64,000 nucleotides of DNA. Origin: Rugalucina vietnamica (taxonomy: Eukaryota; Mollusca; Bivalvia; Lucinida; Lucinidae). The notes beneath the pieces are model-generated. The model was given only the letters and a program-made list of their open reading frames with translations. It had not been told where the DNA came from and did not search any database. How positions within the stretch are numbered: the first letter of the stretch is position 1; every line of letters begins with the position of its first letter. Positions 7,331 through 47,216 of the stretch are shown here, piece after piece. The stretch is from NCBI GenBank assembly GCA_964017185.1, contig OZ024872.1, forward strand, positions 42,848,188 through 42,912,187. The letters run 5' to 3'. A program made the position numbers and the translations under genes.

Positions 7331-7427
7331 ATGGATGTGAAGTTAGCAGTACTTGCAGTACTGCAGTAATACTGCGGCATTAGAGCAGCAGCACCAGCAG
7401 TATTACACATTCGGACAAAAATTACGC
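7331..7427 (+). repeat. Terminal inverted repeat, left
   Basis: Matches the reverse complement of 47121-47216 with few differences, apart from the outermost ~6 bases. It starts (ATGGAT)GTGAAGTTAGCAG and is rich in repeated GCAGTACT and TACTGCAG words, which could be transposase-binding subrepeats. A second, shorter copy of the tip (GTGAAGTTAGCAGTACTGCA) sits just inside at 7446-7473. Confidence 0.9.
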
Positions 7428-7493
7428 TTCAAAGTCAGTCTAAGCGTGAAGTTAGCAGTACTGCAGCATTAGCCTTACAACACAAAGCCGATT

Positions 7494-7551
7494 GAACTAA
7501 TACGTTTTACTAATTTTGATATATTCAATTCAAAATGATAAACAAAACTAA
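7494..7551 (+). repeat. Inner inverted-repeat segment joining terminus to array, left
   Basis: Contains TTTTGATATATTCAATTCAA and AACAAAACTAAGG. It is similar in inverted form to 46238-46300, immediately outside the other array end. The terminal repeats therefore run into the arrays at the same monomer phase on both sides. Confidence 0.7.
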
Positions 7552-9869
7552 GGGAGGGGGTGCAATGACGTCCAAACCGTGTTTGACCCCCGATGTTACC
7601 ACACCAGAGGCTTAACCTTCTTACCAAACCATGATGTGATTGTTGGTATGGTAACACTCTTTTACTTGCGTAGGGTCGGTATACCGGGATAACCCTTGTT
7701 CTCGAGAAAAAAGTGGTATACCTATGTTATACACGCTAAATAAGTGCATATACCGACTTTTGAGCAACAACAAATACTGAAAGTCATGGGCTTAACCTTC
7801 TGGTTTCATCCTTTTTATAATATCGAGTGATCCCCCGGGGATGGAACCAGGTATGTGTGTATACCGGGATAACTCTCGTTCTCGAGAAATAGGGGGTCAA
7901 AATAGGGGGGGTGCAATGAGGTCGGAACCGGTTTTTGACCCCCGATGTTACCACCCAGAGGCTTAACCTTTTGACCAGACCCTGATGTGAATGTTGGTAT
8001 GGTAACACTCTTTCACTTGCGTGGGGTCGGTATACCGGGATAACTCTTGTTCTCGAGAAAAAGTGGTATACCTATGCTATACACGCTAAATAAGTGCATA
8101 TACCGACTTTTGAGCAGCAACAAATAATGAAAGTCATGGGCTTAACCTTCTGGTTCTATCTTTTTTATGATATCGAGTGATCCCCCGGGGATGGAACCAG
8201 GTAGGTGTGTATACCGAGATAACTCTCGTTCTCGAGAAATAGGGGGGTGAAAATAGGGGGGGGGTGCAATGAGGTCGAAACCGGTTTTTGGCCCCCGATG
8301 TTACCACCCAGAGGCTTAACCTTTTGACCAGACCCTGATGTGATTGTTGGTATGGTAACACTCTTTCACTTGCGTGGGGTCGGTATACCGGGATAACTCT
8401 TGTTCTCGAGAAAAAGTGGTATACCAATGCTATACACGCTAAATAAGTGCATATACCGACTTTTTAGCTGCAACAAATAATGAAAGTCATGGGCTTAACC
8501 TTCTGGTTATATCCTTTTTATGATATCGAGTGATCCCCCGGGGATGGAACCAGGTAGGTGTGTATACCGGGATAACTCTCGTTCTCGAGAAATAGGGGTG
8601 TCAAAATAGGGGGGGGGGTGCAATGAGGTCGAAACCAGTTTTTGACCCCCGATGTTACCACCCAGAGGCTTAACCTTTTGACCAGACCCTGATGTGATTG
8701 TTGGTATGGTAACACTCTTTTACTTGCGTGGGGTCGGTATACCGGGATAACTCTTGTTCTCGAGAAAAAGTGGTATACCTATGTTATACACGCTAAATAA
8801 GTGCATATACCGACTTTTGAGCAACAACAAATACTGAAAGTCATGAGCTTAACCTTCTGGTTTCATCCTTTTTATAATATCGAGTGATCCCCGGGGATGG
8901 AACCAGGTAGGTGTGTATACCAGGATAACTCTCGTTCTCGAGAAATAGGGGGGTCAAAATAGGGGGGTGGGTGCGATGAGGTCGGAACCGGTTTTTGACC
9001 CCCGATGTTACCACCCAGAGGTTTAAACCTTTTGACCAGACCCTGATGTGATTGTTGGTATGGTAACACTCTTTCCCTTGCGTGGGGTCGATATACCGGG
9101 ATAACTCTTGTTCTCGAGAAAAAGTGGTATACCTATCCTATACACGCTAAATAAGTGCATATACCGACTTTTGAGCAGCAACAAATAATGAAAGTCATGG
9201 GCTTAACCTTCTGGTTATATCCTTTTTATAATATCGAGTGATCCCCCGGGGATGGAACTAGGTACGTGTGTATACCGAGATAACTCTCGTTCTCGAGAAA
9301 TAGGGGGGTCAAAATAGGCGGGGGGGTGCAATGAGGTCGAAACCGGTTTTTGACCCCCGATGTTACCACCCAGAGGCTTAACCTTTTGACCAGACCCTGA
9401 TGTGATTGTTGGTATGGTAACACTCTTTCACTTGCGTGGGGTCGGTATACCGGGATAACTCTTGTTCTCGAGAAAAAGTGGTATACCTATGTTATACACG
9501 CTAAATAAGTGCATATACCGACTTTTGAGCAACAACAAATACTGAAAGTCATGGGCTTAACCTTCTGGTTTCATCCTTTTTATAATATCGAGTGATCCCC
9601 CGGGGATGGAACCAGGTAGGTGTGTATACCGGGATAACTCTCGTTCTCGAGAAATAGGGGTGTCAAAATAGGGGGGGGGTGCAATGAGGTCGAAACCAGT
9701 TTTTGACCCCCGATGTTACCACCCAGAGGCTTAACCTTTTGACCAGACCCTGATGTGATTGTTGGTATGGTAACACTCTTTCACTTGCGTGGGGTCGGTA
9801 TACCGGGATAACTCTTGTTCTCGAGAAAAAGTGGTATACCTATGTTATACACGCTAAATAAGTGCATAT

Positions 9870-12300
9870 ACCGACTTTTGAGCAACAACAAATACTGAAA
9901 GTCATGAGCTTAACCTTCTGGTTTCATCCTTTTTATAATATCGAGTGATCCCCGGGGATGGAACCAGGTAGGTGTGTATACCAGGATAACTCTCGTTCTC
10001 GAGAAATAGGGGGGTCAAAATAGGGGGGTGGGTGCGATGAGGTCGGAACCGGTTTTTGACCCCCGATGTTACCACCCAGAGGTTTAACCTTTTGACCAGA
10101 CCCTGATGTGATTGTTGGTATGGTAACACTCTTTCACTTGCGTGGGGTCGATATACCGGGATAACTCTTGTTCTCGAGAAAAAGTGGTATACCTATGCTA
10201 TACACGCTAAATAAGTGCATATACCGACTTTTGAGCAGCAACAAATAATGAAAGTCATGGGCTTAACCTTCTGGTTATATCCTTTTTATAATATCGAGTG
10301 ATCCCCCGGGGATGGAACCAGGTACGTGTGTATACCGAGATAACTCTCGTTCTCGAGAAATAGGGGGGTCAAAATAGGCGGGGGGGTGCAATGAGGTCGA
10401 AACCGGTTTTTGACCCCCGATGTTACCACCCAGAGGCTTAACCTTTTGACCAGACCCTGATGTGATTGTTGGTATGGTAACACTCTTTCACTTGCGTGGG
10501 GTCGGTATACCGGGATAACTCTTGTTCTCGAGAAAAAGTGGTATACCTATGTTATACACGCTAAATAAGTGCATATACCGACTTTTGAGCAACAACAAAT
10601 ACTGAAAGTCATGGGCTTAACCTTCTGGTTTCATCCTTTTTATAATATCGAGTGATCCCCCGGGGATGGAACCAGGTAGGTGTGTATACCGGGATAACTC
10701 TCGTTCTCGAGAAATAGGGGGTCAAAATAGGGGGGGGGTGCAATGAGGTCGAAACCGGTTTTTAACCCCCGATGTTACCACCCAGAGGCTTAACCTTTTG
10801 ACCAGACCCTGATGTGAATGTTGGTATGGTAACACTCTTTCACTTGCGTGGGGTCGGTATACCGGGATAACTCTTGTTCTCGAGAAAAAGTGGTATACCT
10901 ATAATATACACGCTAAATAAGTGCATATACAGACTTTTTAGCAGCAACAAATGATGAAAGTCATGGGCTTAATCCTCTGGTTATATCCTTTTTATAATAT
11001 CGAGTGATCCCCCGGGGATGGAACCAGGTACGTGTGTATACCGGGATAACTCTTGTTCTCGAGAAATAGGGGGGTCAAAATAGGGGGGGGGGGGTGCAAT
11101 GAGGTCGAAACCGGTTTTTGACCCCCGATGTTACCACCCAGAGGCTTAACCTTTTGACCAGACCCTGATGTGATTGTTGGTATGGTAACACTCTTTCACT
11201 TGCGTGGGGTCGGTATACCGGGATAACTCTTGTTCTCGAGAAAAAGTGGTATACAGATGTTATACACGCTAAATAAGTGCATATACCGACTTTTGAGCAA
11301 CAACAAATACTGAAAGTCATGGGCTTAACCTTCTGGTTTCATCCTTTTTATAATATCGAGTGATCCCCCGGGGATGGAACCAGGTAGGTGTTTATACCGG
11401 GATAACTCTTGTTCTCGAGAAATAGGGGGGTCAAAATAGGGGGGTGGGTGCAATGAGGTCGAAACCGGTTTTTGACCCCCGATGTTACCACCCAGAGGCT
11501 TAACCTTTTGACCAGACCCTGATGTGATTGTTGGTATGGTAACACTCTTTCACTTGCGTGGGGTCGATATACCGGGATAACTCTTGTTCTCGAGAAAAAG
11601 TGGTATACCTATGCTATACACGCTAAATAAGTGCATATACCGACTTTTGAGCAGCAACCAATAATGAAAGTCATGGGCTTAACCTTCTGGTTATATCCTT
11701 TTTATAATATCGAGTGATCCCCCGGGGATGGAACCAGGTACGTGTGTATACCGGGATAACTCTCGTTCTCGAGAAATAGGGGGGTCAACATAGGGGGGTG
11801 GGTGCAATGAGGTCGAAACCGGTTTTTGACCCCCGATGTTACCACCCAGAGGCTTAACCTTTTGACCAGACCCTGATGTGATTGTTGGTATGGTAACACT
11901 CTTTCACTTGCGTGGGGTCGGTATACCGGGATAACTCTTGTTCTCGAGAAAAAGTGGTATACCTATGTTATACACGCTAAATAAGTGCATATACCGACTT
12001 TTGAGCAACAACAAATACTGAAAGTCATGGGCTTTACCTTCTGGTCTCATCCTTTTTTATAATATCGAGTGATCCCCCGGGGATGGAACCAGGTAGGTGT
12101 GTATACCGGGATAACTCTCGTTCTCGAGAAATAGGGGGGTCAAAATAGGGGGTGGGTGCGATGAGGTCGAAACCGGTTTTTGACCCCCGATGTTACCACC
12201 CAGAGGCTTAACCTTTTGACCAGACCCTGATGTGATTGTTGGTATGGTAACACTCTTTCACTTGCGTGGGGTCGATATACCGGGATAACTCTTGTTCTCG
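9870..12300 (+). repeat. Left-arm segmental duplication, first block
   Basis: A multi-monomer block recurs further along the same arm. Variant monomers at 9902 and 10286 recur at 16979 and 17363 (offset 7077 bp, 20 monomers), and those at 11348 and 11702 recur at 18783 and 19137 (offset 7435 bp, 21 monomers). The markers are shared rare variants such as TCATGAGCTTAACC, AGGTGTTTATACC and TCAACATAGG. Confidence 0.75.
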
Positions 12301-13811
12301 AGAAAAAGTGGTATACCTATGCTATACACGCTAAATAAGTGCATATACCGACTTTTGAGCAACAACAAATAATGAAAGTCATGGGCTTAACCTTCTGGTT
12401 TCATCCTTTTTATAATATCGAGTGATCCCCCGGGGATGGAACAGGTAGGTGTGTATACCGGGATAACTCTCGTTCTCGAGAAATAGGGGGGTCAAAATAG
12501 GGGGGGTGGGTGCGATGATGTCGAAACCGGTTTTTGACTCCCGATGTTACCACCCAGAGGCTTAACCTTTTGACCAGACCCTGATGTGAATGTTGGTATG
12601 GTAACACTCTTTCACTTGCGTGAGGTCGGTATACCGGGATAACTCTTGTTCTCGAGAAAAAGTGGTATACCTATGCTATACACGCTAAATAAGTGCATAT
12701 ACCGACTTTTGAGCAACAACAAATACTGAAAGTCATGGGCTTAACCTTCTAGTTTCATCCTTTTTATAATATCGAGTGATCCCCCGGGGATGGAACCAGG
12801 TAGGTGTGTATACCGGGATAACTCTCGTTCTCGAGAAATAGGGGGTCAAAATAGGGGGGGGGGGTGCAATGAGGTCGAAACCGGTTTTTGACCCCCGATG
12901 TTACCACCCAGAGGCTAAACCTTTTGACCAGACCCTGATGTGAATGTTGGTATGGTAACACTCTTTCACTTGCGTGGGGTCGGTATACCGGGATAACTCT
13001 TGTTCTCGAGAAAAAGTGGTATACCTATGCTATACACGCTAAATAAGTGCATATACCGACTTTTGAGCAGCAACAAATAATGAAAGTCATGGGCTTAACC
13101 TTCTGGTTCTATCTTTTTTATGATATCGAGTGATCCCCCGGGGATGGAACCAGGTAGGTGTGTATACCGGGATAACTCTCGTTCTCGAGAAATAGGGGTG
13201 TCAAAATAGGGGGGGGGGGTGCAATGAGGTCGAAACCGGTTTTTGACCCCCGATGTTACCGCCCAGAGGCTTAACCTTTTGACCAGACCCTGATGTGATT
13301 GTTGGTATGGTAACACTCTTTCACTTGCGTGGGGTCGGTATACCGGGATAACTCTTTTTCTCGAGAAAAAGTGGTATACCTATGCTATACACGCTAAATA
13401 AGTGCATATACCGACTTTTGAGCAGCAACAAATAATGAAAGTCATGGGCTTAACCTTCTGGTTATATCCTTTTTATAATATCGAGTGATCCCCCGGGGAT
13501 GGAACCAGGTAGGTGTGTATACCGGGATAACTCTCGTTCTCGAGAAATAGGGGGGTCAAAATAGGGGGGGGGGTGCAATGAGGTCGGAACCGGTTTTTGA
13601 CCCCCGATGTTACCACCCAGAGGCTTAACCTTTTGACCAGACCCTGATGTGATTGTTGGTATGGTAACACTCTTTCACTTGCGTGGGGTCGATATACCGG
13701 GATAACTCTTGTTCTCGAGAAAAAGTGGTATACCTATGTTATACACGCTAAATAAGTGCATATACCGACTTTTGAGCAACAACAAATACTGAAAGTCATG
13801 GGCTTAACCTT

Positions 13812-16290
13812 CTGGCTTCATTCTTTTTATAATATCGAGTGATCCCCCGGGGATGGAACCAGATAGGTGTGTATACCGGGATAACTCTCGTTCTCGAGAA
13901 ATAGGGGGGTCAAAATAGGGGGGTGGGTGCGATGAGGTCGAAACCGGTTTTTGACCCCCGATGTTACCACCCAGAGGCTTAACCTTTTGACCAGACCCTG
14001 ATGTGATTGTTGGTATGGTAACACTCTTTCACTTGCGTGGGGTCGATATACCGGGATAACTCTTGTTCTCGAGAAAAAGTGGTATACCTATAACATACAC
14101 GCTAAATAAGTGCATATACCGACTTTTGAGCAGCAACAAATAATGAAAGTCATGGGCTTAACCTTCTGGTTATATCCTTTTTATAATATCGAGTGATCCC
14201 CCGGGGATGGAACCAGGTACGTGTGTATACCGGGATAACTCTCGTTCTCGAGAAATAGGTGGGTGAAAATAGGGGGGGGGGTGCAATGAGGTCGAAACCG
14301 GTTTTTGACCCCCGATGTTACCACCCAGAGGCTTAACCTTTTGACCAGACCCTGATGTGATTGTTGGTATGGTAACACTCTTTCACTTGCGTGGGGTCGG
14401 TATACCGGGATAACTCTTGTTCTCGAGAAAAAGTGGTATACCGATGTTATACACGCTAAATAAGTGCATATACCGACTTTTGAGCAACAGCAAATACTGA
14501 AAGTCATGGGCTTAACCTTCTGGTTTCATCTTTTTTATAATATCGAGTGATCCCCCGGGGATGGAACCAGGTAGGTGTGTATACCGGGATAACTCTCGTT
14601 CTCGAGAAATAGGGGGGTCAAAATAGGGGGGTGGGTGCGATGACGTCGAAACCGGTTTTGGACCCCCGATGTTACCACCCAGAGGCTTAACCTTTTGACC
14701 AGACCCTGATGTGATTGTTGGTATGGTAACACTCTTTCACTTGCGTGGGGTCGGTATACCGGGATAACTCTTGTTCTCGAGAAAAAGTGGCATACCTATG
14801 CTATACACCCTAAATAAGTGCATATACCGACTTTTGAGCAGCAACAAATAATGAAAGTCATGGGCTTAACCTTCTGGTTCTATCTTTTTTATGATATCGA
14901 CTGATCCCCCGGGGATGGAACCAGGTAGGTGTGTATACCGGGATAACTCTCGTTCTCGAGAAATAGGGGGGTCAAAATAGGGGGGGGGTGCAATGAGGTC
15001 GAAACCGGTTTTTGACCCCCGATGTTACCACCCAGAGGCTTAACCTTTTGACCAGACCCTGATGTGATTGTTGGTATGGTAACACTCTTTCACTTGCGTG
15101 GGGTCGATATACCGGGATAACTCTTGTTCTCGAGAAAAAGTGGTATACCTATGTTATACACGCTAAATAAGTGCATATACCGACTTTTGAGCAACAACAA
15201 ATACTGAAAGTCATGGGCTTAACCTTCTGGCTTCATTCTTTTTATAATATCGAGTGATCCCCCGGGGATGGAACCAGATAGGTGTGTATACCGGGATAAC
15301 TCTCGTTCTCGAGAAATAGGGGGGTCAAAATAGGGGGGTGGGTGCGATGAGGTCGAAACCGGTTTTTGACCCCCGATGTTACCACCCAGAGGCTTAACCT
15401 TTTGACCAGACCCTGATGTGATTGTTGGTATGGTAACACTCTTTCACTTGCGTGGGGTCGATATACCGGGATAACTCTTGTTCTCGAGAAAAAGTGGTAT
15501 ACCTATAACATACACGCTAAATAAGTGCATATACCGACTTTTGAGCAGCAACAAATAATGAAAGTCATGGGCTTAACCTTCTGGTTATATCCTTTTTATA
15601 ATATCGAGTGATCCCCCGGGGATGGAACCAGGTACGTGTGTATACCGGGATAACTCTCGTTCTCGAGAAATAGGTGGGTGAAAATAGGGGGGGGGGTGCA
15701 ATGAGGTCGAAACCGGTTTTTGACCCCCGATGTTACCACCCAGAGGCTTAACCTTTTGACCAGACCCTGATGTGATTGTTGGTATGGTAACACTCTTTCA
15801 CTTGCGTGGGGTCGGTATACCGGGATAACTCTTGTTCTCGAGAAAAAGTGGTATACCGATGTTATACACGCTAAATAAGTGCATATACCGACTTTTGAGC
15901 AACAGCAAATACTGAAAGTCATGGGCTTAACCTTCTGGTTTCATCTTTTTTATAATATCGAGTGATCCCCCGGGGATGGAACCAGGTAGGTGTGTATACC
16001 GGGATAACTCTCGTTCTCGAGAAATAGGGGGGTCAAAATAGGGGGGTGGGTGCGATGACGTCGAAACCGGTTTTGGACCCCCGATGTTACCACCCAGAGG
16101 CTTAACCTTTTGACCAGACCCTGATGTGATTGTTGGTATGGTAACACTCTTTCACTTGCGTGGGGTCGGTATACCGGGATAACTCTTGTTCTCGAGAAAA
16201 AGTGGCATACCTATGCTATACACCCTAAATAAGTGCATATACCGACTTTTGAGCAGCAACAAATAATGAAAGTCATGGGCTTAACCTTCT
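13812..16290 (+). repeat. Left-arm 1.415-kb tandem duplication (4 monomers)
   Basis: Monomers near 13827, 14181 and 14535 are repeated essentially unchanged at 15242, 15596 and 15950 (offset 1415 bp). Shared rare variants include CCTATAACATACACG, TAGGTGGGTGAAAATAG, GATGACGTCG and GTGGCATACC. This is a very recent unequal exchange. Confidence 0.85.
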
Positions 16291-16949
16291 GGTTCTATCT
16301 TTTTTATGATATCGACTGATCCCCCGGGGATGGAACCAGGTAGGTGTGTATACCGGGATAACTCTCGTTCTCGAGAAATAGGGGGGTCAAAATAGGGGGG
16401 GGTGCAATGAGGTCGAAACAGGTTTTTGACCCCCGATGTTACCACCCAGAGGCTTAACCTTTTGACCAGACCCTGATGTGATTGTTGGTATGGTAACACT
16501 CTTTCACTTGCGTGGGGTCGGTATACCGGGATAACTCTTGTTCTCGAGAAAAAGTGGTATACCTATGTTATACACGCTAAATAAGTGCATATACCGACTT
16601 TTGAGCAACAACAAATAATGAAAGTCATGGGCTTTACCTTCTGGTCTCATCCTTTTTTATAATATCGAGTGATCCCCCGGGGATGGAACCAGGTAGGTGT
16701 GTATACCGGGATAACTCTCGTTCTCGAGAAATAGGGGGGTCAAAATAGGGGGTGGGTGCGATGAGGTCGAAACCGGTTTTTGACCCCCGATGTTACCACC
16801 CAGAGGCTTAACCTTTTGACCAGACCCTGATGTGATTGTTGGTATGGTAACACTCTTTTACTTGCGTGGGGTCGGTATACCGGGATAACTCTTGTTCTCG
16901 AGAAAAAGTGGTATACCTATGTTATACACGCTAAATAAGTGCATATACC

Positions 16950-19740
16950 GACTTTTGAGCAACAACAAATACTGAAAGTCATGAGCTTAACCTTCTGGTT
17001 TCATCCTTTTTATAATATCGAGTGATCCCCGGGGATGGAACCAGGTAGGTGTGTATACCAGGATAACTCTCGTTCTCGAGAAATAGGGGGGTCAAAATAG
17101 GGGGGTGGGTGCGATGAGGTCGGAACCGGTTTTTGACCCCCGATGTTACCACCCAGAGGTTTAACCTTTTGACCAGACCCTGATGTGATTGTTGGTATGG
17201 TAACACTCTTTCACTTGCGTGGGGTCGATATACCGGGATAACTCTTGTTCTCGAGAAAAAGTGGTATACCTATGCTATACACGCTAAATAAGTGCATATA
17301 CCGACTTTTGAGCAGCAACAAATAATGAAAGTCATGGGCTTAACCTTCTGGTTATATCCTTTTTATAATATCGAGTGATCCCCCGGGGATGGAACCAGGT
17401 ACGTGTGTATACCGAGATAACTCTCGTTCTCGAGAAATAGGGGGGTCAAAATAGGCGGGGGGGTGCAATGAGGTCGAAACCGGTTTTTGACCCCCGATGT
17501 TACCACCCAGAGGCTTAACCTTTTGACCAGACCCTGATGTGATTGTTGGTATGGTAACACTCTTTCACTTGCGTGGGGTCGGTATACCGGGATAACTCTT
17601 GTTCTCGAGAAAAAGTGGTATACCTATGTTATACACGCTAAATAAGTGCATATACCGACTTTTGAGCAACAACAAATACTGAAAGTCATGGGCTTAACCT
17701 TCGGGTTTCATCCTTTTTATAATATCGAGTGATCCCCCGGGGATGGAACCAGGTAGGTGTGTATACCGGGATAACTCTCGTTCTCGAGAAAAAGGGGGTC
17801 AAAATAGGGGGGGGGGTGCAATGAGGTCGAAACCGGTTTTTAACCCCCGATGTTACCACCCAGAGGCTTAACCTTTTGACCAGACCCTGATGTGAATGTT
17901 GGTATGGTAACACTCTTTCACTTGCGTGGGGTCGGTATACCGGGATAACTCTTGTTCTCGAGAAAAAGTGGTATACCTATAATATACACGCTAAATAAGT
18001 GCATATACAGACTTTTTAGCAGCAACAAATGATGAAAGTCATGGGCTTAACCTTCTGGTTATATCCTTTTTATAATATCGAGTGATCCCCCGGGGATGGA
18101 ACCAGGTACGTGTGTATACCGGGATAACTCTCGTTCTCGAGAAATAGGTGGGTGAAAATAGGGGGGGGGGGTGCAATGAGGTCGAAACCGGTTTTTGACC
18201 CCCGATGTTACCACCCAGAGGCTTAACCTTTTGACCAGACCCTGATGTGATTGTTGGTATGGTAACACTCTTTCACTTGCGTGGGGTCGATATACCGGGA
18301 TAACTCTTGTTCTCGAGAAAAAGTGGTATACCTATAATATACACGCTAAATAAGTGCATATACAGACTTTTTAGCAGCAACAAATGATGAAAGTCATGGG
18401 CTTAACCTTCTGGTTATATCCTTTTTATAATATCGAGTGATCCCCCGGGGATGGAACCAGGTACGTGTGTATACCGGGATAACTCTTGTTCTCGAGAAAT
18501 TGGGGGGGGGGGTCAAAATAGGGGGGGGGTGCAATGAGGTCGAAACCGGTTTTTGACCCCCGATGTTACCACCCAGAGGCTTAACCTTTTGACCAGACCC
18601 TGATGTGATTGTTGGTATGGTAACACTCTTTCACTTGCGTGGGGTCGGTATACCGGGATAACTCTTGTTCTCGAGAAAAAGTGGTATACATATGTTATAC
18701 ACGCTAAATAAGTGCATATACCGACTTTTGAGCAACAACAAATACTGAAAGTCATGGGCTTAACCTTCTGGTTTCATCCTTTTTATAATATCGAGTGATC
18801 CCCCGGGGATGGAACCAGGTAGGTGTTTATACCGGGATAACTCTTGTTCTCGAGAAATAGGGGGGTCAAAATAGGGGGGTGGGTGCAATGAGGTCGAAAC
18901 CGGTTTTTGACCCCCGATGTTACCACCCAGAGGCTTAACCTTTTGACCAGACCCTGATGTGATTGTTGGTATGGTAACACTCTTTCACTTGCGTGGGGTC
19001 GATATACCGGGATAACTCTTGTTCTCGAGAAAAAGTGGTATACCTATGCTATACACGCTAAATAAGTGCATATACCGACTTTTGAGCAGCAACCAATAAT
19101 GAAAGTCATGGGCTTAACCTTCTGGTTATATCCTTTTTATAATATCGAGTGATCCCCCGGGGATGGAACCAGGTACGTGTGTATACCGGGATAACTCTCG
19201 TTCTCGAGAAATAGGGGGGTCAACATAGGGGGGTGGGTGCAATGAGGTCGAAACCGGTTTTTGACCCCCGATGTTACCACCCAGAGGCTTAACCTTTTGA
19301 CCAGACCCTGATGTGATTGTTGGTATGGTAACACTCTTTCACTTGCGTGGGGTCGGTATACCGGGATAACTCTTGTTCTCGAGAAAAAGTGGTATACCTA
19401 TGTTATACACGCTAAATAAGTGCATATACCGACTTTTGAGCAACAACAAATACTGAAAGTCATGGGCTTTACCTTCTGGTCTCATCCTTTTTTATAATAT
19501 CGAGTGATCCCCCGGGGATGGAACCAGGTAGGTGTGTATACCGGGATAACTCTCGTTCTCGAGAAATAGGGGGGTCAAAATAGGGGGTGGGTGCGATGAG
19601 GTCGAAACCGGTTTTTGACCCCCGATGTTACCACCCAGAGGCTTAACCTTTTGACCAGACCCTGATGTGATTGTTGGTATGGTAACACTCTTTCACTTGC
19701 GTGGGGTCGATATACCGGGATAACTCTTGTTCTCGAGAAA
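16950..19740 (+). repeat. Left-arm segmental duplication, second block
   Basis: Second copy of the 9870-12300 block, offset 7.08-7.43 kb. The change in offset between its parts shows the insertion of one extra monomer after or during the duplication. Confidence 0.7.
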
Positions 19741-22021: not shown

Positions 22022-22060
22022 GGGATAACTCTCGTTCTCGAGAAAAAGTGGTATACCTAT
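22022..22060 (+). repeat. Half-monomer deletion junction
   Basis: ATACCGGGATAACTCTCG of half A passes directly through GTTCTCGAGAAA into AAGTGGTATACC of half B, removing roughly 175 bp. The join lies in the core shared by the two halves, as expected for recombination between A and B. Confidence 0.85.
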
Positions 22061-24989: not shown

Positions 24990-25020
24990 TTAAAATATCG
25001 AGTGATAACATCGGGGGTCA
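24990..25020. other. Head-to-head inversion junction at the element centre
   Basis: The left-orientation monomer stops at ATATCGAGTGAT (25005), and the next base starts AACATCGGGGGTCAAAAACC, which is monomer sequence in the reverse orientation. There is no unique spacer. About 110 bp of monomer lies between the two break phases, so the centre is not a perfect dyad. Confidence 0.92.
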
Positions 25021-36100: not shown

Positions 36101-39100
36101 TGCTCAAAAGTCGGTATATGCACTTATTAAGCGTGTATAGCATAGGTATACCACTTTTTCTCGAGAACAAGAGTTATCCCGGTATATCGACCCCACGCAA
36201 GTGAAAGAGTGTTACCATACCAACAATCACATCAGGGTCTGGTCAAAAGGTTAAGCCTCTGGGTGGTAACATCGGGGGTCAAAAACCGGTTTCGACCTCA
36301 TCGCACCCACCCCCCTATTTTGACCCCTCTATTTCTCGAGAACGAGAGTTATCCCGGTATACACTCCTACCTGGTTCCATCCCCGGGGGATCACTCGATA
36401 TTATAAAAAAGGATGAAACCAGAAGGTTAAGCCCATGACTTTCAGTATTTGTTGTTGCTCAAAAGTCGGTATATGCACTTATTTAGCGTGTATAACATAG
36501 GTATACCACTTTTTGTCGAGAACAGAGTTATCCCGGTATACCGACCCCACGCAAGTGAAAGAGTGTTACCATACCAACAATCACATCAGGGTCTGGTCAA
36601 AAGGTTAAGCCTCTGGGTGGTAACATCGGGGGTCAAAAACCGGTTTCGACCTCATTGCACCCCCCCCCCTATGTTGACCCCCCTATTTCTCGAGAACGAG
36701 AGTTATCCCGGTATACACACGTACCTGGTTCCATCCCCGGGGGATCACTCGATATTATAAAAAAGATATAACCAGAAGGTTAAGCCCATGACTTTCATTA
36801 TTTGTTGCTGCTCAAAAGTCGGTATATGCACTTATTTAGCGTGTATAGCATAGGTATACCACTTTTTCTCGAGAACAAGAGTTATCCCGGTATATCGACC
36901 CCACGCAAGTGAAAGAGTGTTACCATACCAACAATCACATCAGGGTCTGGTCAAAAGGTTAAGCCTCTGGGTGGTAACATCGGGGGTCAAAAACCGGTTT
37001 CGACCTCATTGCACCCCCCCCCCCCATTTTGACCCCCCTATTTCTCGAGAACGAGAGTTATCCCGGTATAAACACCTACCTGGTTCCATCCCCGGGGGAT
37101 CACTCGATATTATAAAAAGGATGAAACCAGAAGGTTAAGCCCATGACTTTCAGTATTTGTTGTTGCTCAAAAGTCGGTATATGCACTTATTTAGCGTGTA
37201 TAACATAGGTATACCACTTTTTCTCGAGAACAAGAGTTATCCCGGTATACCGACCCCACGCAAGTGAAAGAGTGTTACCATACCAACAATCACATCAGGG
37301 TCTGGTCAAAAGGTTAAGCCTCTGGGTGGTAACATCGGGGGTCAAAAACCGGTTTCGACCTCATTGCACCCCCCCCCCTATGTTGACACCCTATTTCTCG
37401 AGAACGAGAGTTATCCCGGTATACACACCTACCTGGTTCCATCCCCGGGGGATCACTCGATATTATAAAAAGGATATAACCAGAAGGTTAAGCCCATGAC
37501 TTTCATTATTTGTTGCTGCTCAAAAGTCGGTATATGCACTTATTTAGCGTGTATAGCATAGGTATACCACTTTTTCTCGAGAACAAGAGTTATCCCGGTA
37601 TATCGACCCCACGCAAGTGAAAGAGTGTTACCATACCAACAATCACATCAGGGTCTGGTCAAAAGGTTAAGCCTCTGGGTGGTAACATCGGGGGTCAAAA
37701 ACCGGTTTCGACCTCATCGCACCCACCCCCCTATTTTGACCCCCCTATTTCTCGAGAACGAGAGTTATCCCGGTATACACACCTACCTGGTTCCATCCCC
37801 GGGGGATCACTCGATATTATAAAAAAGGATGAAACCAGAAGGTTAAGCCCATGACTTTCAGTATTTGTTGTTGCTCAAAAGTCGGTATATGCACTTATTT
37901 AGCGTGTATAACATAGGTATACCACTTTTTCTCGAGAACAAGAGTTATCCCGGTATACCGACCCCACGCAAGTGAAAGAGTGTTACCATACCAACAATCA
38001 CATCAGGGTCTGGTTAAAAGGTTAAGCCTCTGGGTGGTAACATCGGGGGTCAAAAACCGGTTTCGACCTCATTGCACCCACCCCCCTACGTTGACCCCCC
38101 TATTTCTCGAGAACGAGAGTTATCCCGGTATACACACGTACCTGGTTCCATCCCCGGGGGATCACTCGATATTATAAAAAAGATATAACCAGAAGGTTAA
38201 GCCCATGACTTTCATTATTTGTTGCTGCTCAAAAGTCGGTATATGCACTTATTTAGCGTGTATAGCATAGGTATACCACTTTTTCTCGAGAACAAGAGTT
38301 ATCCCGGTATATCGACCCCACGCAAGTGAAAGAGTGTTACCATACCAACAATCACATCAGGGTCTGGTCAAAAGGTTAAGCCTCTGGGTGGTAACATCGG
38401 GGGTCAAAAACCGGTTTCGACCTCATTGCACCCACCCCCCTATGTTGACCCCCCTATTTCTCGAGAACGAGAGTTATCCCGGTATACACACGTACCTGGT
38501 TCCATCCCCGGGGGATCACTCGATATTATAAAAAAGATATAACCAGAAGGTTAAGCCCATGACTTTCATTATTTGTTGCTGCTCAAAAGTCGGTATATGC
38601 ACTTATTTAGCGTGTATAGCATAGGTATACCACTTTTTCTCGAGAACAAGAGTTATCCCGGTATATCGACCCCACGCAAGTGAAAGAGTGTTACCATACC
38701 AACAATCACATCAGGGTCTGGTCAAAAGGTTAAGCCTCTGGGTGGTAACATCGGGGGTCAAAAACCGGTTTCGACCTCATTGCACCCCCCCCATTTTGAC
38801 CCCCCTATTTCTCGAGAACGAGAGTTATCCCGGTATAAACACCTACCTGGTTCCATCCCCGGGGGATCACTCGATATTATAAAAAGGATGAAACCAGAAG
38901 GTTAAGCCCATGACTTTCAGTATTTGTTGTTGCTCAAAAGTCGGTATATGCACTTATTTAGCGTGTATAACATAGGTATACCACTTTTTCTCGAGAACAA
39001 GAGTTATCCCGGTATACCGACCCCACGCAAGTGAAAGAGTGTTACCATACCAACAATCACATCAGGGTCTGGTCAAAAGGTTAAGCCTCTGGGTGGTAAC

Positions 39101-42100
39101 ATCGGGGGTCAAAAACCGGTTTCGACCTCATTGCACCCCCCCCCCCTATGTTGACCCCCCTATTTCTCGAGAACGAGAGTTATCCCGGTATACACACCTA
39201 CCTGGTTCCATCCCCGGGGGATCACTCGATATTATAAAAAGGATATAACCAGAAGGTTAAGCCCATGACTTTCATTATTTGTTGCTGCTCAAAAGTCGGT
39301 ATATGCACTTATTTAGCGTGTATAGCATAGGTATACCACTTTTTCTCGAGAACAAGAGTTATCCCGGTATATCAACCCCACGCAAGTGAAAGAGTGTTAC
39401 CATACCAACAATCACATCAGGGTCTGGTCAAAAGGTTAAGCCTCTGGGTGGTAACATCGGGGGTCAAAAACCGGTTTCGACCTCATCGCACCCACCCCCC
39501 TATTTTGACCCCCCTATTTCTCGAGAACGAGAGTTATCCCGGTATACAAACCTACCTGGTTCCATCCCCGGGGGATCACTCGATATTATAAAAAAGGATG
39601 AAACCAGAAGGTTAAGCCCATGACTTTCAGTATTTGTTGTTGCTCAAAAGTCGGTATATGCACTTATTTAGCGTGTATAACATAGGTATACCACTTTTTC
39701 TGGAGAACAAGAGTTATCCCGGTATACCGACCCCACGCAAGTGAAAGAGTGTTACCATACCAACAATCACATCAGGGTCTAGTTAAAAGGTTAAGCCTCT
39801 GGGTGGTAACATCGGGGGTCAAAAACCGGTTTCGACCTCATTGCACCCACCCCCCTACGTTGACCCCCCTATTTCTCGAGAACGAGAGTTATCCCGGTAT
39901 ACACACGTACCTGGTTCCATCCCCGGGGGATCACTCGATATTATAAAAAAGATATAACCAGAAGGTTAAGCCCATGACTTTCATTATTTGTTGCTGCTCA
40001 AAAGTCGGTATATGCACTTATTTAGCGTGTATAGCATAGGTATACCACTTTTTCTCGAGAACAAGAGTTATCCCGGTATATCGACCCCACGCAAGTGAAA
40101 GAGTGTTACCATACCAACAATCACATCAGGGTCTGGTCAAAAGGTTAAGCCTCTGGGTGGTAACATCGGGGGTCAAAAACCGGTTTCGACCTCATTGCAC
40201 CCACCCCCCTATGTTGACCCCCCTATTTCTCGAGAACGAGAGTTATCCCGGTATACACACGTACCTGGTTCCATCCCCGGGGGATCACTCGATATTATAA
40301 AAAAGATATAACCAGAAGGTTAAGCCCATGACTTTCATTATTTGTTGCTGCTCAAAAGTCGGTATATGCACTTATTTAGCGTGTATAGCATAGGTATACC
40401 ACTTTTTCTCGAGAACAAGAGTTATCCCGGTATATCGACCCCACGCAAGTGAAAGAGTGTTACCATACCAACAATCATATCAGGGTCTGGTCAAAAGGTT
40501 AAGCCTCTGGGTGGTAACATCGGGGGTCAAAAACCGGTTTCGACCTCATTGCACCCCCCCCCATTTTGACCCCCCTATTTCTCGAGAACGAGAGTTATCC
40601 CGGTATAAACACCTACCTGGTTCCATCCCCGGGGGATCACTCGATATTATAAAAAGGATGAAACCAGAAGGTTAAGCCCATGACTTTCAGTATTTGTTGT
40701 TGCTCAAAAGTCGGTATATGCACTTATTTAGCGTGTATAACATAGGTATACCACTTTTTCTCGAGAACAAGAGTTATCCCGGTATACCGACCCCACGCAA
40801 GTGAAAGAGTGTTACCATACCAACAATCACATCAGGGTCTGGTCAAAAGGTTAAGCCTCTGGGTGGTAACATCGGGGGTCAAAAACCGGTTTCGACCTCA
40901 TTGCACCCCCCCCCCTATGTTGACCCCCCTATTTCTCGAGAACGAGAGTTATCCCGGTATACACACCTACCTGGTTCCATCCCCGGGGGATCACTCGATA
41001 TTATAAAAAGGATATAACCAGAAGGTTAAGCCCATGACTTTCATTATTTGTTGCTGCTCAAAAGTCGGTATATGCACTTATTTAGCGTGTATAGCATAGG
41101 TATACCACTTTTTCTCGAGAACAAGAGTTATCCCGGTATATCAACCCCACGCAAGTGAAAGAGTGTTACCATACCAACAATCACATCAGGGTCTGGTCAA
41201 AAGGTTAAGCCTCTGGGTGGTAACATCGGGGGTCAAAAACCGGTTTCGACCTCATCGCACCCACCCCCCTATTTTGACCCCCCCCCCCTATTTCTCGAGA
41301 ACGAGAGTTATCCCGGTATACACACCTACCTGGTTCCATCCCCGGGGGATCACTCGATATTATAAAAAAGATATAACCAGAAGGTTAAGCCCATGACTTT
41401 CATTATTTTTTGCTGCTCAAAAGTCGGTATATGCACTTATTTAGCGTGTATAGCATAGGTATACCACTTTTTCTCGAGAACAAGAGTTATCCCGGTATAT
41501 CGACCCCACGCAAGTGAAAGAGTGTTACCATACCAACAATCATATCAGGGTCTGGTCAAAAGGTTAAGCCTCTGGGTGGTAACATCGGGGGTCAAAAACC
41601 GGTTTCGACCTCATTGCACCCCCCCCCCATTTTGACCCCCCTATTTCTCGAGAACGAGAGTTATCCCGGTATAAACACCTACCTGGTTCCATCCCCGGGG
41701 GATCACTCGATATTATAAAAAGGATGAAACCAGAAGGTTAAGCCCATGACTTTCAGTATTTGTTGTTGCTCAAAAGTCGGTATATGCACTTATTTAGCGT
41801 GTATAACATAGGTATACCACTTTTTCTCGAGAACAAGAGTTATCCCGGTATACCGACCCCACGCAAGTGAAAGAGTGTTACCATACAAACAATCACATCA
41901 GGGTCTGGTCAAAAGGTTAAGCCTCTGGGTGGTAACATCGGGGGTCAAAAACCGGTTTCGACCTCATTGCACCCCCCCCCCTATTTTGACCCCCCTATTT
42001 CTCGAGAACGAGAGTTATCCCGGTATACACACGTACCTGGTTCCATCCCCGGGGGATCACTCGATATTATAAAAAGGATATAACCAGAAGGTTAAGCCCA

Positions 42101-45100
42101 TGACTTTCATTATTTGTTGCTGCTCAAAAGTCGGTATATGCACTTATTAAGCGTGTATAGCATAGGTATACCACTTTTTCTCGAGAACAAGAGTTATCCC
42201 GGTATATCGACCCCACGCAAGTGAAAGAGTGTTACCATACCAACAATCACATCAGGGTCTGGTCAAAAGGTTAAGCCTCTGGGTGGTAACATCGGGGGTC
42301 AAAAACCGGTTTCGACCTCATCGCACCCACCCCCCTATTTTGACCCCTCTATTTCTCGAGAACGAGAGTTATCCCGGTATACACTCCTACCTGGTTCCAT
42401 CCCCGGGGGATCACTCGATATTATAAAAAAGGATGAAACCAGAAGGTTAAGCCCATGACTTTCAGTATTTGTTGTTGCTCAAAAGTCGGTATATGCACTT
42501 ATTTAGCGTGTATAACATAGGTATACCACTTTTTCTCGAGAACAGAGTTATCCCGGTATACCGACCCCACGCAAGTGAAAGAGTGTTACCATACCAACAA
42601 TCACATCAGGGTCTGGTCAAAAGGTTAAGCCTCTGGGTGGTAACATCGGGGGTCAAAAACCGGTTTCGACCTCATTGCACCCCCCCCCCTATGTTGACCC
42701 CCCTATTTCTCGAGAACGAGAGTTATCCCGGTATACACACGTACCTGGTTCCATCCCCGGGGGATCACTCGATATTATAAAAAAGATATAACCAGAAGGT
42801 TAAGCCCATGACTTTCATTATTTGTTGCTGCTCAAAAGTCGGTATATGCACTTATTTAGCGTGTATAGCATAGGTATACCACTTTTTCTCGAGAACAAGA
42901 GTTATCCCGGTATATCGACCCCACGCAAGTGAAAGAGTGTTACCATACCAACAATCACATCAGGGTCTGGTCAAAAGGTTAAGCCTCTGGGTGGTAACAT
43001 CGGGGGTCAAAAACCGGTTTCGACCTCATTGCACCCCCCCCCCCCATTTTGACCCCCCTATTTCTCGAGAACGAGAGTTATCCCGGTATAAACACCTACC
43101 TGGTTCCATCCCCGGGGGATCACTCGATATTATAAAAAGGATGAAACCAGAAGGTTAAGCCCATGACTTTCAGTATTTGTTGTTGCTCAAAAGTCGGTAT
43201 ATGCACTTATTTAGCGTGTATAACATAGGTATACCACTTTTTCTCGAGAACAAGAGTTATCCCGGTATACCGACCCCACGCAAGTGAAAGAGTGTTACCA
43301 TACCAACAATCACATCAGGGTCTGGTCAAAAGGTTAAGCCTCTGGGTGGTAACATCGGGGGTCAAAAACCGGTTTCGACCTCATTGCACCCCCCCCCCCT
43401 ATGTTGACACCCTATTTCTCGAGAACGAGAGTTATCCCGGTATACACACCTACCTGGTTCCATCCCCGGGGGATCACTCGATATTATAAAAAGGATATAA
43501 CCAGAAGGTTAAGCCCATGACTTTCATTATTTGTTGCTGCTCAAAAGTCGGTATATGCACTTATTTAGCGTGTATAGCATAGGTATACCACTTTTTCTCG
43601 AGAACAAGAGTTATCCCGGTATATCGACCCCACGCAAGTGAAAGAGTGTTACCATACCAACAATCACATCAGGGTCTGGTCAAAAGGTTAAGCCTCTGGG
43701 TGGTAACATCGGGGGTCAAAAACCGGTTTCGACCTCATCGCACCCACCCCCCTATTTTGACCCCCCTATTTCTCGAGAACGAGAGTTATCCCGGTATACA
43801 CACCTACCTGGTTCCATCCCCGGGGGATCACTCGATATTATAAAAAAGGATGAAACCAGAAGGTTAAGCCCATGACTTTCAGTATTTGTTGTTGCTCAAA
43901 AGTCGGTATATGCACTTATTTAGCGTGTATAACATAGGTATACCACTTTTTCTCGAGAACAAGAGTTATCCCGGTATACCGACCCCACGCAAGTGAAAGA
44001 GTGTTACCATACCAACAATCACATCAGGGTCTGGTTAAAAGGTTAAGCCTCTGGGTGGTAACATCGGGGGTCAAAAACCGGTTTCGACCTCATTGCACCC
44101 ACCCCCCTACGTTGACCCCCCTATTTCTCGAGAACGAGAGTTATCCCGGTATACACACGTACCTGGTTCCATCCCCGGGGGATCACTCGATATTATAAAA
44201 AAGATATAACCAGAAGGTTAAGCCCATGACTTTCATTATTTGTTGCTGCTCAAAAGTCGGTATATGCACTTATTTAGCGTGTATAGCATAGGTATACCAC
44301 TTTTTCTCGAGAACAAGAGTTATCCCGGTATATCGACCCCACGCAAGTGAAAGAGTGTTACCATACCAACAATCACATCAGGGTCTGGTCAAAAGGTTAA
44401 GCCTCTGGGTGGTAACATCGGGGGTCAAAAACCGGTTTCGACCTCATTGCACCCACCCCCCCCCATTTTGACCCCCCTATTTCTCGAGAACGAGAGTTAT
44501 CCCGGTATAAACACCTACCTGGTTCCATCCCCTGGGGATCACTCGATATTATAAAAAGGATGAAACCAGAAGGTTAAGCCCATGACTTTCAGTATTTGTT
44601 GTTGCTCAAAAGTCGGTATATGCACTTATTTAGCGTGTATAACATAGGTATACCACTTTTTCTCGAGAACAAGAGTTATCCCGGTATACCGACCCCACGC
44701 AAGTGAAAGAGTGTTACCATACCAACAATCACATCAGGGTCTGGTCAAAAGGTTAAGCCTCTGGGTGGTAACATCGGGGGTCAAAAACCGGTTTCGACCT
44801 CATTGCACCCCCCCCCCCTATGTTGACACCCTATTTCTCGAGAACGAGAGTTATCCCGGTATACACACCTACCTGGTTCCATCCCCGGGGGATCACTCGA
44901 TATTATAAAAAGGATATAACCAGAAGGTTAAGCCCATGACTTTCATTATTTGTTGCTGCTCAAAAGTCGGTATATGCACTTATTTAGCGTGTATAGCATA
45001 GGTATACCACTTTTTCTCGAGAACAAGAGTTATCCCGGTATATCGACCCCACGCAAGTGAAAGAGTGTTACCATACCAACAATCACATCAGGGTCTGGTC

Positions 45101-45640
45101 AAAAGGTTAAGCCTCTGGGTGGTAACATCGGGGGTCAAAAACCGGTTTCGACCTCATCGCACCCACCCCCCTATTTTGACCCCCCTATTTCTCGAGAACG
45201 AGAGTTATCCCGGTATACACACCTACCTGGTTCCATCCCCGGGGGATCACTCGATATTATAAAAAAGGATGAAACCAGAAGGTTAAGCCCATGACTTTCA
45301 GTATTTGTTGTTGCTCAAAAGTCGGTATATGCACTTATTTAGCGTGTATAACATAGGTATACCACTTTTTCTCGAGAACAAGAGTTATCCCGGTATACCG
45401 ACCCCACGCAAGTGAAAGAGTGTTACCATACCAACAATCACATCAGGGTCTGGTTAAAAGGTTAAGCCTCTGGGTGGTAACATCGGGGGTCAAAAACCGG
45501 TTTCGACCTCATTGCACCCACCCCCCTACGTTGACCCCCCTATTTCTCGAGAACGAGAGTTATCCCGGTATACACACGTACCTGGTTCCATCCCCGGGGG
45601 ATCACTCGATATTATAAAAAAGATATAACCAGAAGGTTAA
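30101..45640 (-). repeat. Higher-order repeat, ~6.02 kb (17 monomers), ~2.6 copies
   Basis: Rare markers recur at constant spacing: TTATTAAGCG at 30101, 36124 and 42144 (6023 and 6020 bp), and the 2-bp deletion GAGAACAGAG at 30495, 36518 and 42538. The order of variant monomers between markers is the same in successive copies. Typical centromere-like satellite organisation, here inside a transposon arm. Confidence 0.88.
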
Positions 45641-45990
45641 GCCCATGACTTTCATTATTTGTTGCTGCTCAAAAGTCGGTATATGCACTTATTTAGCGTG
45701 TATAGCATAGGTATACCACTTTTTCTCGAGAACAAGAGTTATCCCGGTATATCGACCCCACGCAAGTGAAAGAGTGTTACCATACCAACAATCACATCAG
45801 GGTCTGGTCAAAAGGTTAAGCCTCTGGGTGGTAACATCGGGGGTCAAAAACCGGTTTCGACCTCATTGCACCCACCCCCCCCCCCATTTTGACCCCCCTA
45901 TTTCTCGAGAACGAGAGTTATCCCGGTATAAACACCTACCTGGTTCCATCCCCTGGGGATCACTCGATATTATAAAAAGGATGAAACCAG
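43150..45990 (-). repeat. Right-arm 1.42-kb tandem duplication (4 monomers)
   Basis: Monomers starting near 43292, 43646, 44001 and 44355 are repeated at 44711, 45065, 45420 and 45774 (offset 1419 bp). The marker TGTTGACACCCTATTTCTC is shared. It mirrors in size the 4-monomer duplication of the left arm. Confidence 0.8.
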
Positions 45991-46237
45991 AAGGTTAAGC
46001 CCATGACTTTCAGTATTTGTTGTTGCTCAAAAGTCGGTATATGCACTTATTTAGCGTGTATAACATAGGTATACCACTTTTTCTCGAGAACAAGAGTTAT
46101 CCCGGTATACCGACCCCACGCAAGTGAAAGAGTGTTACCATACCAACAATCACATCAGGGTCTGGTCAAAAGGTTAAGCCTCTGGGTGGTAACATCGGGG
46201 GTCAAAAACCGGTTTCGACCTCATTGCACCCCCCCCA

Positions 46238-46300
46238 CTACTTTTGTCCATTATTTTGAATTTAATTATATCAAAAAATTGTAAAAGAAATATTCGCTAG
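46238..46300 (-). repeat. Inner inverted-repeat segment joining array to terminus, right
   Basis: The array ends in TCATTGCACCCCCC and passes into CTACTTTTGTCCATTATTTT and TATATCAAAAAATTGTAAAA, the inverted counterpart of 7494-7551. Confidence 0.7.
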
Positions 46301-47120
46301 TTGCGATCAATATGTATCTTGATTTGAATTTCTTTTTTTACAAAATCGAGGACGGACACTTCAAGACAACGCTACCTATGCTTTGCACTACGATGCATGT
46401 AACTTATATATGCGTTGCATTTGAATACATTTAAACAGAAGCAATGTGAATTCTTTACACAGTAGGACTGATAAATGTGGCTCACCGAATACATGCATGT
46501 TTTGGAAAACGGAGACCTGTCATTGCAACGTTGCAAGCGATTGGCCCATAGTTTGGGCAGATTTAAGATGTAATGCTACCTACGTTTGGTCAAAAATGCG
46601 TATCTATCAACCGTCTTTTGTCACATGATTGTATTCATGTAGCCTTTCTTCAATGCATGTATTTTGCTATATTGTGTGATTCAATCAGCTGCTGTTTTGC
46701 CATATAGTGGCCAAACTGATGAATGTAGAAATTTTTAAATAATCATTTTATAATTGTTTAGCGACTTTGGTGTGACCCTATACAGCAAAAATACCGTCCT
46801 TGGATGCTGGCTAACACCCTATTTTTTGCAGCACACGGTCTGGGGCGATCTTTCGTTTGCTGAATGTGTTGGGGACCACTATGAGTTATGAAGCCTATGA
46901 ATGAGTCTTGCTTTGTGGTAAATTACAATGGGGGTCTATGGGGACAATAATTATAGGTCTCTGTCCTTGTGGCGCTTAATATGATGCACATAATTCCCGA
47001 CATTACTAAAAAGTGTTGAATTAGGCCTTTTGCTAGAAAACAAAACATGCAAACATATAAGTATTTTATTAAATGGTTCAAAAAAGATAACTATAATAGC
47101 AGTCCAAATGAACAATACGG
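46301..47120. other. Right-arm-only single-copy segment of the giant element
   Basis: About 0.8 kb lies between the inner and outer inverted-repeat segments on the right side only. The left end has ~65 bp at the same position, including a second terminal-repeat tip, so the left probably suffered a deletion. The longest open frame is 60 codons (46446-46628) and unrecognised. I see no protein or RNA signature. Confidence 0.6.
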
Positions 47121-47216
47121 GCGTAATTTTTGTCCGAATGTGTAATGCTGCTGGTGCTGTTGGGCTAATGCTGCAGTATTACTGCAGTACTGCAAGTACT
47201 GCTAACTTCACCGCCG
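47121..47216 (-). repeat. Terminal inverted repeat, right
   Basis: Inverted counterpart of 7331-7427, reading inwards from the right end as (CGGCG)GTGAAGTTAGCAG. Reading through it from the PPT exon adds 12 foreign residues after GGGD and then a stop at 47179-47181. Confidence 0.9.

What the first reader, a model, noticed from the sequence alone, without database searches (positions are those of the whole stretch)
7331..47216. A 39.9-kb foldback-type transposon built from two opposed satellite arrays
Seen: a perfect 10-bp direct repeat flanks ~97-bp terminal inverted repeats, and nearly everything between is ~109 copies of one ~354-bp monomer in two head-to-head arms. Known: Drosophila foldback elements have long inverted repeats made of short tandem units and make 9-bp target duplications, and they are linked to the Phantom/Mutator group. 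Inference: this is a giant relative or analogue, in which a whole satellite landscape has moved, or grown, as one transposable unit. That would connect satellite DNA birth directly with transposition.
Basis: partly seen in the sequence, partly recalled or inferred. Interest (0 to 1): 0.95.

Follow-up and report, generated by a model that had tools for sequence, protein, structure and literature searches.

The report
Giant jumping satellite DNA family
A 40-kilobase block of repeated DNA that splits a gene in a clam-like animal is one of a family of giant jumping elements built almost wholly of satellite repeats, and closely related copies indicate that the repeats travel with the element, so satellite DNA is being moved as cargo.

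Summary
The element spans 7331-47217 with a 9-bp target duplication (a chance T makes it look like 10 bp). It splits a gene whose 447-codon frame closes when the insert and one duplicate are removed. In the same 1.09-Gb genome (bivalve-like; species not identified), 30 convergent pairs of its termini lie 8.7-59.8 kb apart. Of 22 pairs whose ends I read, 17 have perfect 9-bp duplications, all different; the control gave 0 of 462. Eight elements read whole, the window's included, are each one plus and one minus arm of the same ~354-bp satellite. A satellite 21-mer occurs 461 times; the 100 places listed all lie inside such elements. Two pairs of elements on different contigs, 0.2-0.3% apart in unique sequence and with unrelated flanks, each share a diverse array partly in the same order; one pair shares an odd centre junction. 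So arrays moved with the element and then changed length. The 9-bp duplication and asymmetric 6-bp ends resemble Mutator/Phantom foldback elements such as Tm1; the body is a giant version of Tetris. No transposase with these ends was found, so the superfamily is inferred. New variant of a known kind.

The parts
6539..7330 (-). 3' half of the interrupted target gene (polysaccharide pyruvyl transferase family, PF04230), up to and including the left target duplication
   Evidence: tblastn of P0002 residues 186-444 at 87%; frame restored when flanks are joined
7322..7330 (.). left copy of the 9-bp target site duplication GTCCCCACC
7331..7336 (+). asymmetric left end motif ATGGAT
   Evidence: the same motif at one end of all 12 A copies examined
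7337..7427 (+). left terminal inverted repeat, 91 bp, 86/91 identical to the right one
7446..7458 (+). second copy of the terminal motif GTGAAGTTAGCAG, 109 bp inside the left end
   Evidence: such a second copy is in 10 of the 11 A copies tested, window included
7428..7555 (+). left spacer; its inner ~60 bp is homologous to the inner end of the right spacer
7556..25006 (+). plus arm: about 49 copies of the ~354-bp satellite monomer
25002..46246 (-). minus arm: about 61 copies of the same monomer, head-to-head with the plus arm and with no middle domain
46247..47120 (-). right spacer, conserved among copies and used to date them; no stop-to-stop frame of 120 aa or more lies within it
47121..47211 (-). 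right terminal inverted repeat
47212..47217 (-). asymmetric right end motif ACGGCG (read inward)
47218..47226 (.). right copy of the 9-bp target site duplication GTCCCCACC
47218..47778 (-). 5' half of the interrupted target gene
   Evidence: tblastn of P0002 residues 1-190 at 79%; joined ORF of 447 codons plus stop

Best explanation
It is one copy of a family of giant foldback-type DNA transposons, apparently without a transposase gene of their own, whose body is a head-to-head pair of satellite arrays. Shown: the copies examined are bounded by the same composite inverted ends with asymmetric 6-bp tips, most sit in their own 9-bp target duplication, and for two pairs of copies the array itself was inherited at a new locus. 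Inferred: a transposase supplied in trans, most likely of the Mutator/Phantom group, binds the composite ends, cuts the element out and pastes it in with a 9-bp stagger. Inferred: between jumps the arms lengthen and shorten by unequal exchange or replication slippage of blocks of monomers (the duplicated blocks are shown, the process is not), so each copy soon has its own size while the satellite stays inside the element.
For: Family: 106 motif occurrences against 0 control hits; 30 convergent pairs under 70 kb among 85 outer termini, random mean 0.1. Insertion: perfect 9-bp duplications in 17 of 22 pairs, all distinct, 0 of 462 cross-pairings; target gene frame restored, matching the intact homologue P0002. 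Anatomy: 8 of 8 A elements read whole, window included, are one plus block followed by one minus block of the same monomer; a ninth, C4:18.12 Mb, shows the same switch of strand in its monomer 21-mers. Confinement: of 461 exact places of a monomer 21-mer, 100 are listed and all 100 lie inside A elements, including 23 of 23 on C1. Moved as a unit: window/C5 differ by 0.32% and C11/C4:76.5 by 0.21% in the right spacer, the two closest pairs of 14 copies, while their 1-kb flanks are unrelated. Window and C5: between-element monomer divergence 2.95% lies between the within values 2.86 and 3.09%, with 44 identical monomer pairs (gaps ignored), and a collinear 9-monomer plus-arm block at 0.66% against 3.3% background, score 0.093 vs null maximum 0.045. 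C11 and C4:76.5: the first six plus monomers match in position (0.113 vs 0.071), four minus monomers match in order (0.046 vs 0.037), and the centre junction has the same 27-bp filler with one base different.
Against: No transposase with these ends was found: the closest of 59 MULE-domain hits is 255 kb from any of 85 termini, and 6 kb inside five lone termini gave no MULE domain in the nine ORFs scanned. Five of 22 pairs lack a clean duplication; in two of them (C16, C11) it is displaced or interrupted. The minus-arm collinearity of window and C5 was not above its null (0.011 vs 0.011). Of the 12 element pairs printed, ten show no convincing collinearity (C11/C1 minus arms only just exceed the null). 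Window and C5 share the plus-side breakpoint at the centre but not the whole junction. Of the B subfamily only one copy's interior was seen, for its first ~2 kb. Eight of the 30 pairs were not read at all. Array lengths rest on one assembly; no reads and no empty allele were available.
Confidence: 0.88

Rival explanations
1. Small elements with a few monomers inserted, and each array grew in place afterwards; only the ends and a seed moved.
For: Array sizes differ widely between copies; identical monomers and duplicated blocks inside arms (7 identical pairs of 1128 in the plus arm, 50 of 1770 in the minus arm); most printed element pairs share no collinear order.
Against: Window and C5 are 0.32% apart in the right spacer yet share 2.9-3.1% monomer diversity, 44 identical monomer pairs and a 9-monomer block in order. 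C11 and C4:76.5 share centre junction and outer monomers. The target gene is still open: simulated chance 0.10 at 1.5% decay, about half the 2.8% monomer divergence, which is what growth from one monomer in place would imply.
Confidence: 0.06
2. Independent satellite arrays were flanked later by unrelated copies of a small inverted-repeat element, making composite units.
For: The same terminus exists on about 110-bp elements without satellite. A composite unit between foldback elements, the Ising TE, is mentioned in PMC6431247 (passage).
Against: In the window both array borders start at the same monomer position and share a subterminal block; the two ends are of different kinds, one of each in 22 of 22 pairs; none of the 100 listed satellite places lies outside an A element.
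Confidence: 0.04
3. Assembly artefact or chimera.
For: Long inverted tandem arrays are hard to assemble; no reads could be checked.
Against: No Ns in the eight elements; duplications, frame restoration and the same plan at many loci are not expected from misassembly. Array lengths could still be wrong.
Confidence: 0.02

Closest known systems
Tetris, foldback transposon of Drosophila virilis (PMC4079207; abstract, and part 1 of 2 of both Results and Discussion read)
   Same: Ends of a flanking domain followed by satellite-size tandem repeats (~220 bp), no conserved ORFs, 8-10 bp target duplications, the repeats also in long arrays of up to 66 copies; partner transposase not found.
   Different: Tetris inverted repeats reach 1,735 bp and enclose a middle domain; its authors say the long arrays arose by amplification inside Tetris that may have disrupted the element. 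Here 15-61 monomer anchors per arm (42-110 per element) lie inside elements with intact ends, the arms meet without a middle domain, and long arrays are inherited by new insertions. No sequence comparison was made.
Tm1, Mutator/Foldback family of root-knot nematodes (PMC3169594; passages and part 1 of 2 of the Discussion read)
   Same: Mostly 9-bp target duplications, composite inverted ends, short asymmetric motifs outside the inverted repeat with one kind at each end, MITE-like relatives.
   Different: Tm1 has ~14-bp repeats and a member with a Phantom-type transposase; none was found here. The end motifs differ (7 bp CGGTTAA/CCTACCC there; 6 bp ATGGAT/ACGGCG here).
Drosophila FB elements and Galileo
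   Same: Long inverted repeats with internal tandem repeats (recalled, and as cited in PMC4079207 and PMC3169594).
   Different: Much smaller (recalled). Galileo carries a P-type transposase (cited in PMC3169594), so a foldback shape does not prove descent.
Cg_HINE Helentrons of the Pacific oyster (PMC7492417; abstract and passages seen through 'find')
   Same: Bivalve non-autonomous elements carrying satellite-like arrays.
   Different: Arrays keep one orientation to their flanks, the longest has 29.3 monomers, no target duplication; here two opposed arms with 9-bp duplications.

Membership tests
Foldback-type transposon (structural class) | Long inverted arms made of tandem repeats behind an end domain | tested here: met
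   8 of 8 A elements read whole
Foldback-type transposon (structural class) | Target site duplications at multiple loci | tested here: met
   17 of 22 pairs with perfect 9-bp duplications
Mutator superfamily / Phantom | 8-10, mostly 9, bp target duplication | tested here: met
   yardstick from PMC3169594. Other superfamilies with near sizes exist (recalled)
Mutator superfamily / Phantom | MULE transposase encoded between the same ends in some family member | tested here: inconclusive
   59 PF10551 hits in the genome, the closest 255 kb from 85 outer termini taken from the 100 of 106 that were listed; a partner with diverged ends would be missed. Membership is not claimed, only likeness
Mutator superfamily / Phantom | FLYWCH zinc finger in the partner transposase | not tested
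   PF04500 search did not complete
Tm1-like sub-terminal ends | Asymmetric short motifs outside the inverted repeat, one of each kind per element | tested here: met
   22 of 22 pairs have one ATG-type and one ACG-type end; likeness of plan, not of sequence
Tetris | Sequence homology to Tetris/DAIBAM ends | not tested
   no Tetris sequence on hand
Helentron/HINE | No target duplication; one-way array | tested here: not met
   9-bp duplications and opposed arms
Classical satellite DNA | Long free arrays outside mobile elements | tested here: inconclusive
   monomer 21-mer: 461 exact places, the 100 listed all inside A elements; 361 not listed

The most novel reading that the evidence does not exclude
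A satellite DNA that lives only as the body of a giant transposon: intact 16-42 kb (perhaps up to 60 kb) inverted satellite arrays are cut and pasted as units by a trans-acting transposase, and the satellite's family history (subfamilies A and B) is the transposon's history. This would be a transposable satellite, not a transposon that later decays into a satellite.
Probability: 0.75. Interest if true: 0.88.

Novelty: new variant of a known kind. Interest (0 to 1): 0.82.

Why it matters
Whether transposition spreads satellite DNA, or only seeds it, is usually argued from decayed remains. Here the elements have intact ends, many copies, datable spacers and target duplications. Array transfer, array growth and array loss can therefore be measured separately on one family. 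If mobile as inferred, these are DNA transposons of 16-42 kb made almost wholly of inverted repeats, which poses a size and hairpin-tolerance problem for the transposase. The window copy also gives a natural disruption of a gene in which to look for an empty allele.

Tried and rejected
Lone termini as possible autonomous partners: of 25 unpaired outer termini I read 1.5-1.8 kb at twelve (L069-L080) and 6 kb at five of these (L081-L085). Nine of the ORFs there were scanned with Pfam: endonuclease/reverse-transcriptase domains in L082 and L083, a PARP14-like RRM and a Mib_herc2 domain in L083, a receptor domain in L081, a mariner-type Transposase_1 fragment in L085, no MULE; ORFs of L084 and the shorter ones were not scanned. 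L069 is a diverged B-like element with monomer. MULE genes near termini: none within 250 kb. Terminus in viral and prokaryote collections: 0. Rfam: 0. Host species by COX1: best named match 68%, one unnamed 86%, of 120 listed. So the host is called bivalve-like only by the gene's nearest named animal relatives, Ruditapes and Mercenaria; Haliotis and a record named as a bacterial MAG appear lower in that list. Mirror-image order between the two arms of the window element: no clear diagonal, untested for significance. The first identity table was wrong (gaps counted as matches) and was replaced. Two odd-length units were dropped before clustering. In one search only units of 320-390 bp were kept (477). 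In one search, 28 element pairs were computed with 30 shuffles each and 12 printed; the other 16 were not seen. In one search, 15 inner second copies among the 100 listed motifs were left out, and 6 of the 106 were never listed.

Prior art: seven answered paper searches (the last found 0 papers). No listing named a giant foldback element made of satellite arrays that move as a unit. The library lacks most subscription journals and all bioRxiv preprints.

Full report
What is in the window. The perfect direct repeat TGTCCCCACC is at 7321-7330 and 47217-47226 and the inverted ends are 86/91 identical. The body is a ~354-bp monomer in two opposed arms, with 49 and 61 anchors. Mean divergence among 106 monomers is 2.8%. 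Each arm holds its own duplicated blocks, seen as runs of best partners at lags of about 21 and 4 monomers in the plus arm and 17 and 4 in the minus arm; 7 of 1128 and 50 of 1770 within-arm pairs are identical. No position has different majority bases above 80% in the two arms. The monomer looks like an old dimer: its halves align at score 19.5 against at most 6.5 in 300 shuffles. In this element both arrays begin at the same monomer position, and a ~60-bp subterminal block is shared by the two ends, so the borders look built in.

The insertion. The flanks hold the two halves of one gene on the minus strand. Removing the insert and one duplicate gives one continuous frame without introns of 447 codons plus stop, matching an intact 445-residue homologue across the site. 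The family is polysaccharide pyruvyl transferase (PF04230), with Ruditapes and Mercenaria the nearest named relatives, at 52-53%. A decay simulation gives a chance of staying open of 0.72 at 0.2%, 0.21 at 1% and 0.10 at 1.5% substitution, so the insertion is probably young.

A family. The window lies in a 1.09-Gb genome of 47 contigs. The 17-base terminus with up to one mismatch occurs 106 times there, its reversed control 0 times. Of 100 listed places I set aside 15 inner second copies; the remaining 85 form 30 convergent pairs under 70 kb, against 0.1 for random placement, and leave 25 unpaired. Spans run from 8.7 to 59.8 kb. Two main subfamilies differ at the 17th base, A (window) and B. 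Ends of 12 A and 10 B pairs were read; 8 pairs were not. In all 22, one end bears an ATG-type and the other an ACG-type 6-bp motif. Seventeen (10 A, 7 B) have perfect 9-bp duplications, all different, against 0 perfect and 4 of at least 7/9 among 462 cross-pairings. Of the five others, C16 has its 9-mer displaced by 5 bp, C11 has it interrupted by 14 bp that begin with the element's own first 12 bases, and three B pairs have none. The comparison fixes the window element at 7331-47217 and its duplication at 9 bp.

Same body in every A copy read whole. Seven other A elements were read whole (15.8-29.8 kb). With the window, 8 of 8 consist of one plus block followed by one minus block of the same monomer, with 42-110 anchors per element; arms are broken by other sequence in some, e.g. 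C1 and C4:76.5. A monomer 21-mer occurs 461 times in the genome. The 100 listed places, on C1 and on C4 up to the window element, all fall inside A elements; the list looks ordered by contig, which would mean none on C2 and C3. The eight read elements hold 252 of the 461. One B element was seen for its first ~2 kb and carries monomers about 87% like A.

Moved or grown. The right spacer serves as a clock. Among 14 copies the two closest pairs are C11/C4:76.5 (0.21%) and window/C5 (0.32%); the rest differ by 0.8-5.6%, and C8 from all others by 14-17%, which may reflect a foreign stretch. These two pairs share arrays while their 1-kb flanks have no similarity, so they are not segmental duplicates. 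Window and C5 have between-element monomer divergence of 2.95% against 2.86 and 3.09% within, with 44 identical monomer pairs, and a plus-arm block of 9 monomers in order at 0.66% (score 0.093, null maximum 0.045). C11 and C4:76.5 share the first six plus monomers in the same positions (0.113 vs 0.071), four minus monomers (0.046 vs 0.037) and a centre junction with the same 27-bp filler, one base different. Against this, the minus arms of window and C5 were not above their null in that test (0.011 vs 0.011), though their best five-monomer windows reach 0.45% against a 2.2% mean. Their centres share the plus-side breakpoint but differ in filler. Of the other ten printed pairs only C11/C1 minus arms exceed the null, and barely (0.025 vs 0.020). 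Across 28 pairs of eight elements, spacer divergence and net array divergence correlate at 0.87; the pairs are not independent. If monomers and spacer mutate at similar rates, three per cent of diversity cannot arise in the time that gives 0.3%, so the arrays were carried. Since window and C5 now have 110 and 45 anchors, array length changed quickly afterwards.

How it most likely works. Shown: intact ends, 9-bp duplications, inherited arrays in two pairs, duplicated blocks. Inferred: a trans-acting transposase cuts and pastes the unit. The 9-bp size, composite ends and asymmetric tips are those reported for Tm1, a Mutator/Foldback family with a Phantom-type member (PMC3169594; passages and Discussion part 1). 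The genome holds 59 MULE-domain hits, none within 250 kb of the 85 termini, so the partner is not identified and I do not file the family under Mutator. Small relatives of about 110 bp with the same terminus exist; one has a perfect 9-bp duplication.

Against what is known. Tetris (PMC4079207; abstract, part 1 of Results and of Discussion) is the nearest kind: a foldback element with satellite-size repeats in its ends, 8-10 bp duplications, and arrays of up to 66 repeats that its authors derive from amplification inside Tetris, which may have disrupted it. The present family differs in scale, in lacking a middle domain, and in showing that long arrays travel. Oyster Helentrons carry shorter one-way arrays without duplications (PMC7492417; passages). 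A review of giant transposons mentions foldback elements once, as borders of the Ising TE (PMC6431247; passages). Seven answered searches listed no report of this combination. I rate it a new variant of a known kind, of high interest.

Noticed in passing
L018 right flank (C11:15.865 Mb): The right target copy of element C11 reads GTGAT, then 14 bp starting with the element's own first 12 bases ATGGATGTGAAG, then TTAA; it looks like a footprint of a second insertion or an aborted transposition.
   Followed up: partly
L078 (C6:27.968 Mb) and L076 (C2:25.093 Mb): About 110-bp palindromic MITE-like elements with the same terminus; L078 has a perfect 9-bp duplication CCAGTTTTA, L076 matches 7 of 9. 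The exact two-ended pattern occurs only twice in the genome.
   Followed up: partly
G000 C9:6.150-6.215 Mb: An A element and a B element lie about 7 kb apart.
   Followed up: no
window 1875-4156, 51631-52762, 61539-62617: Three other short tandem arrays (units of about 465, 161 and 448 bp). The inverted-repeat scan showed no pair of end repeats bounding them; the first and third have GGTCAAGGTCA-type inverted repeats inside or near them.
   Followed up: partly
L070-L073, L075: Lone termini sharing only about 20-40 bp with the element ends, followed by unrelated DNA; possibly truncated or distant relatives.
   Followed up: partly
window 6539-7330 and 47218-47778: The target is an animal gene without introns in this stretch, of a family named from exopolysaccharide pyruvyl transferases in several of its metagenome relatives, with clam and abalone relatives.
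   Followed up: no
L086 (C47): Mitochondrial COX1 of the host: best named match 68% identity, one unnamed at 86%.
   Followed up: partly
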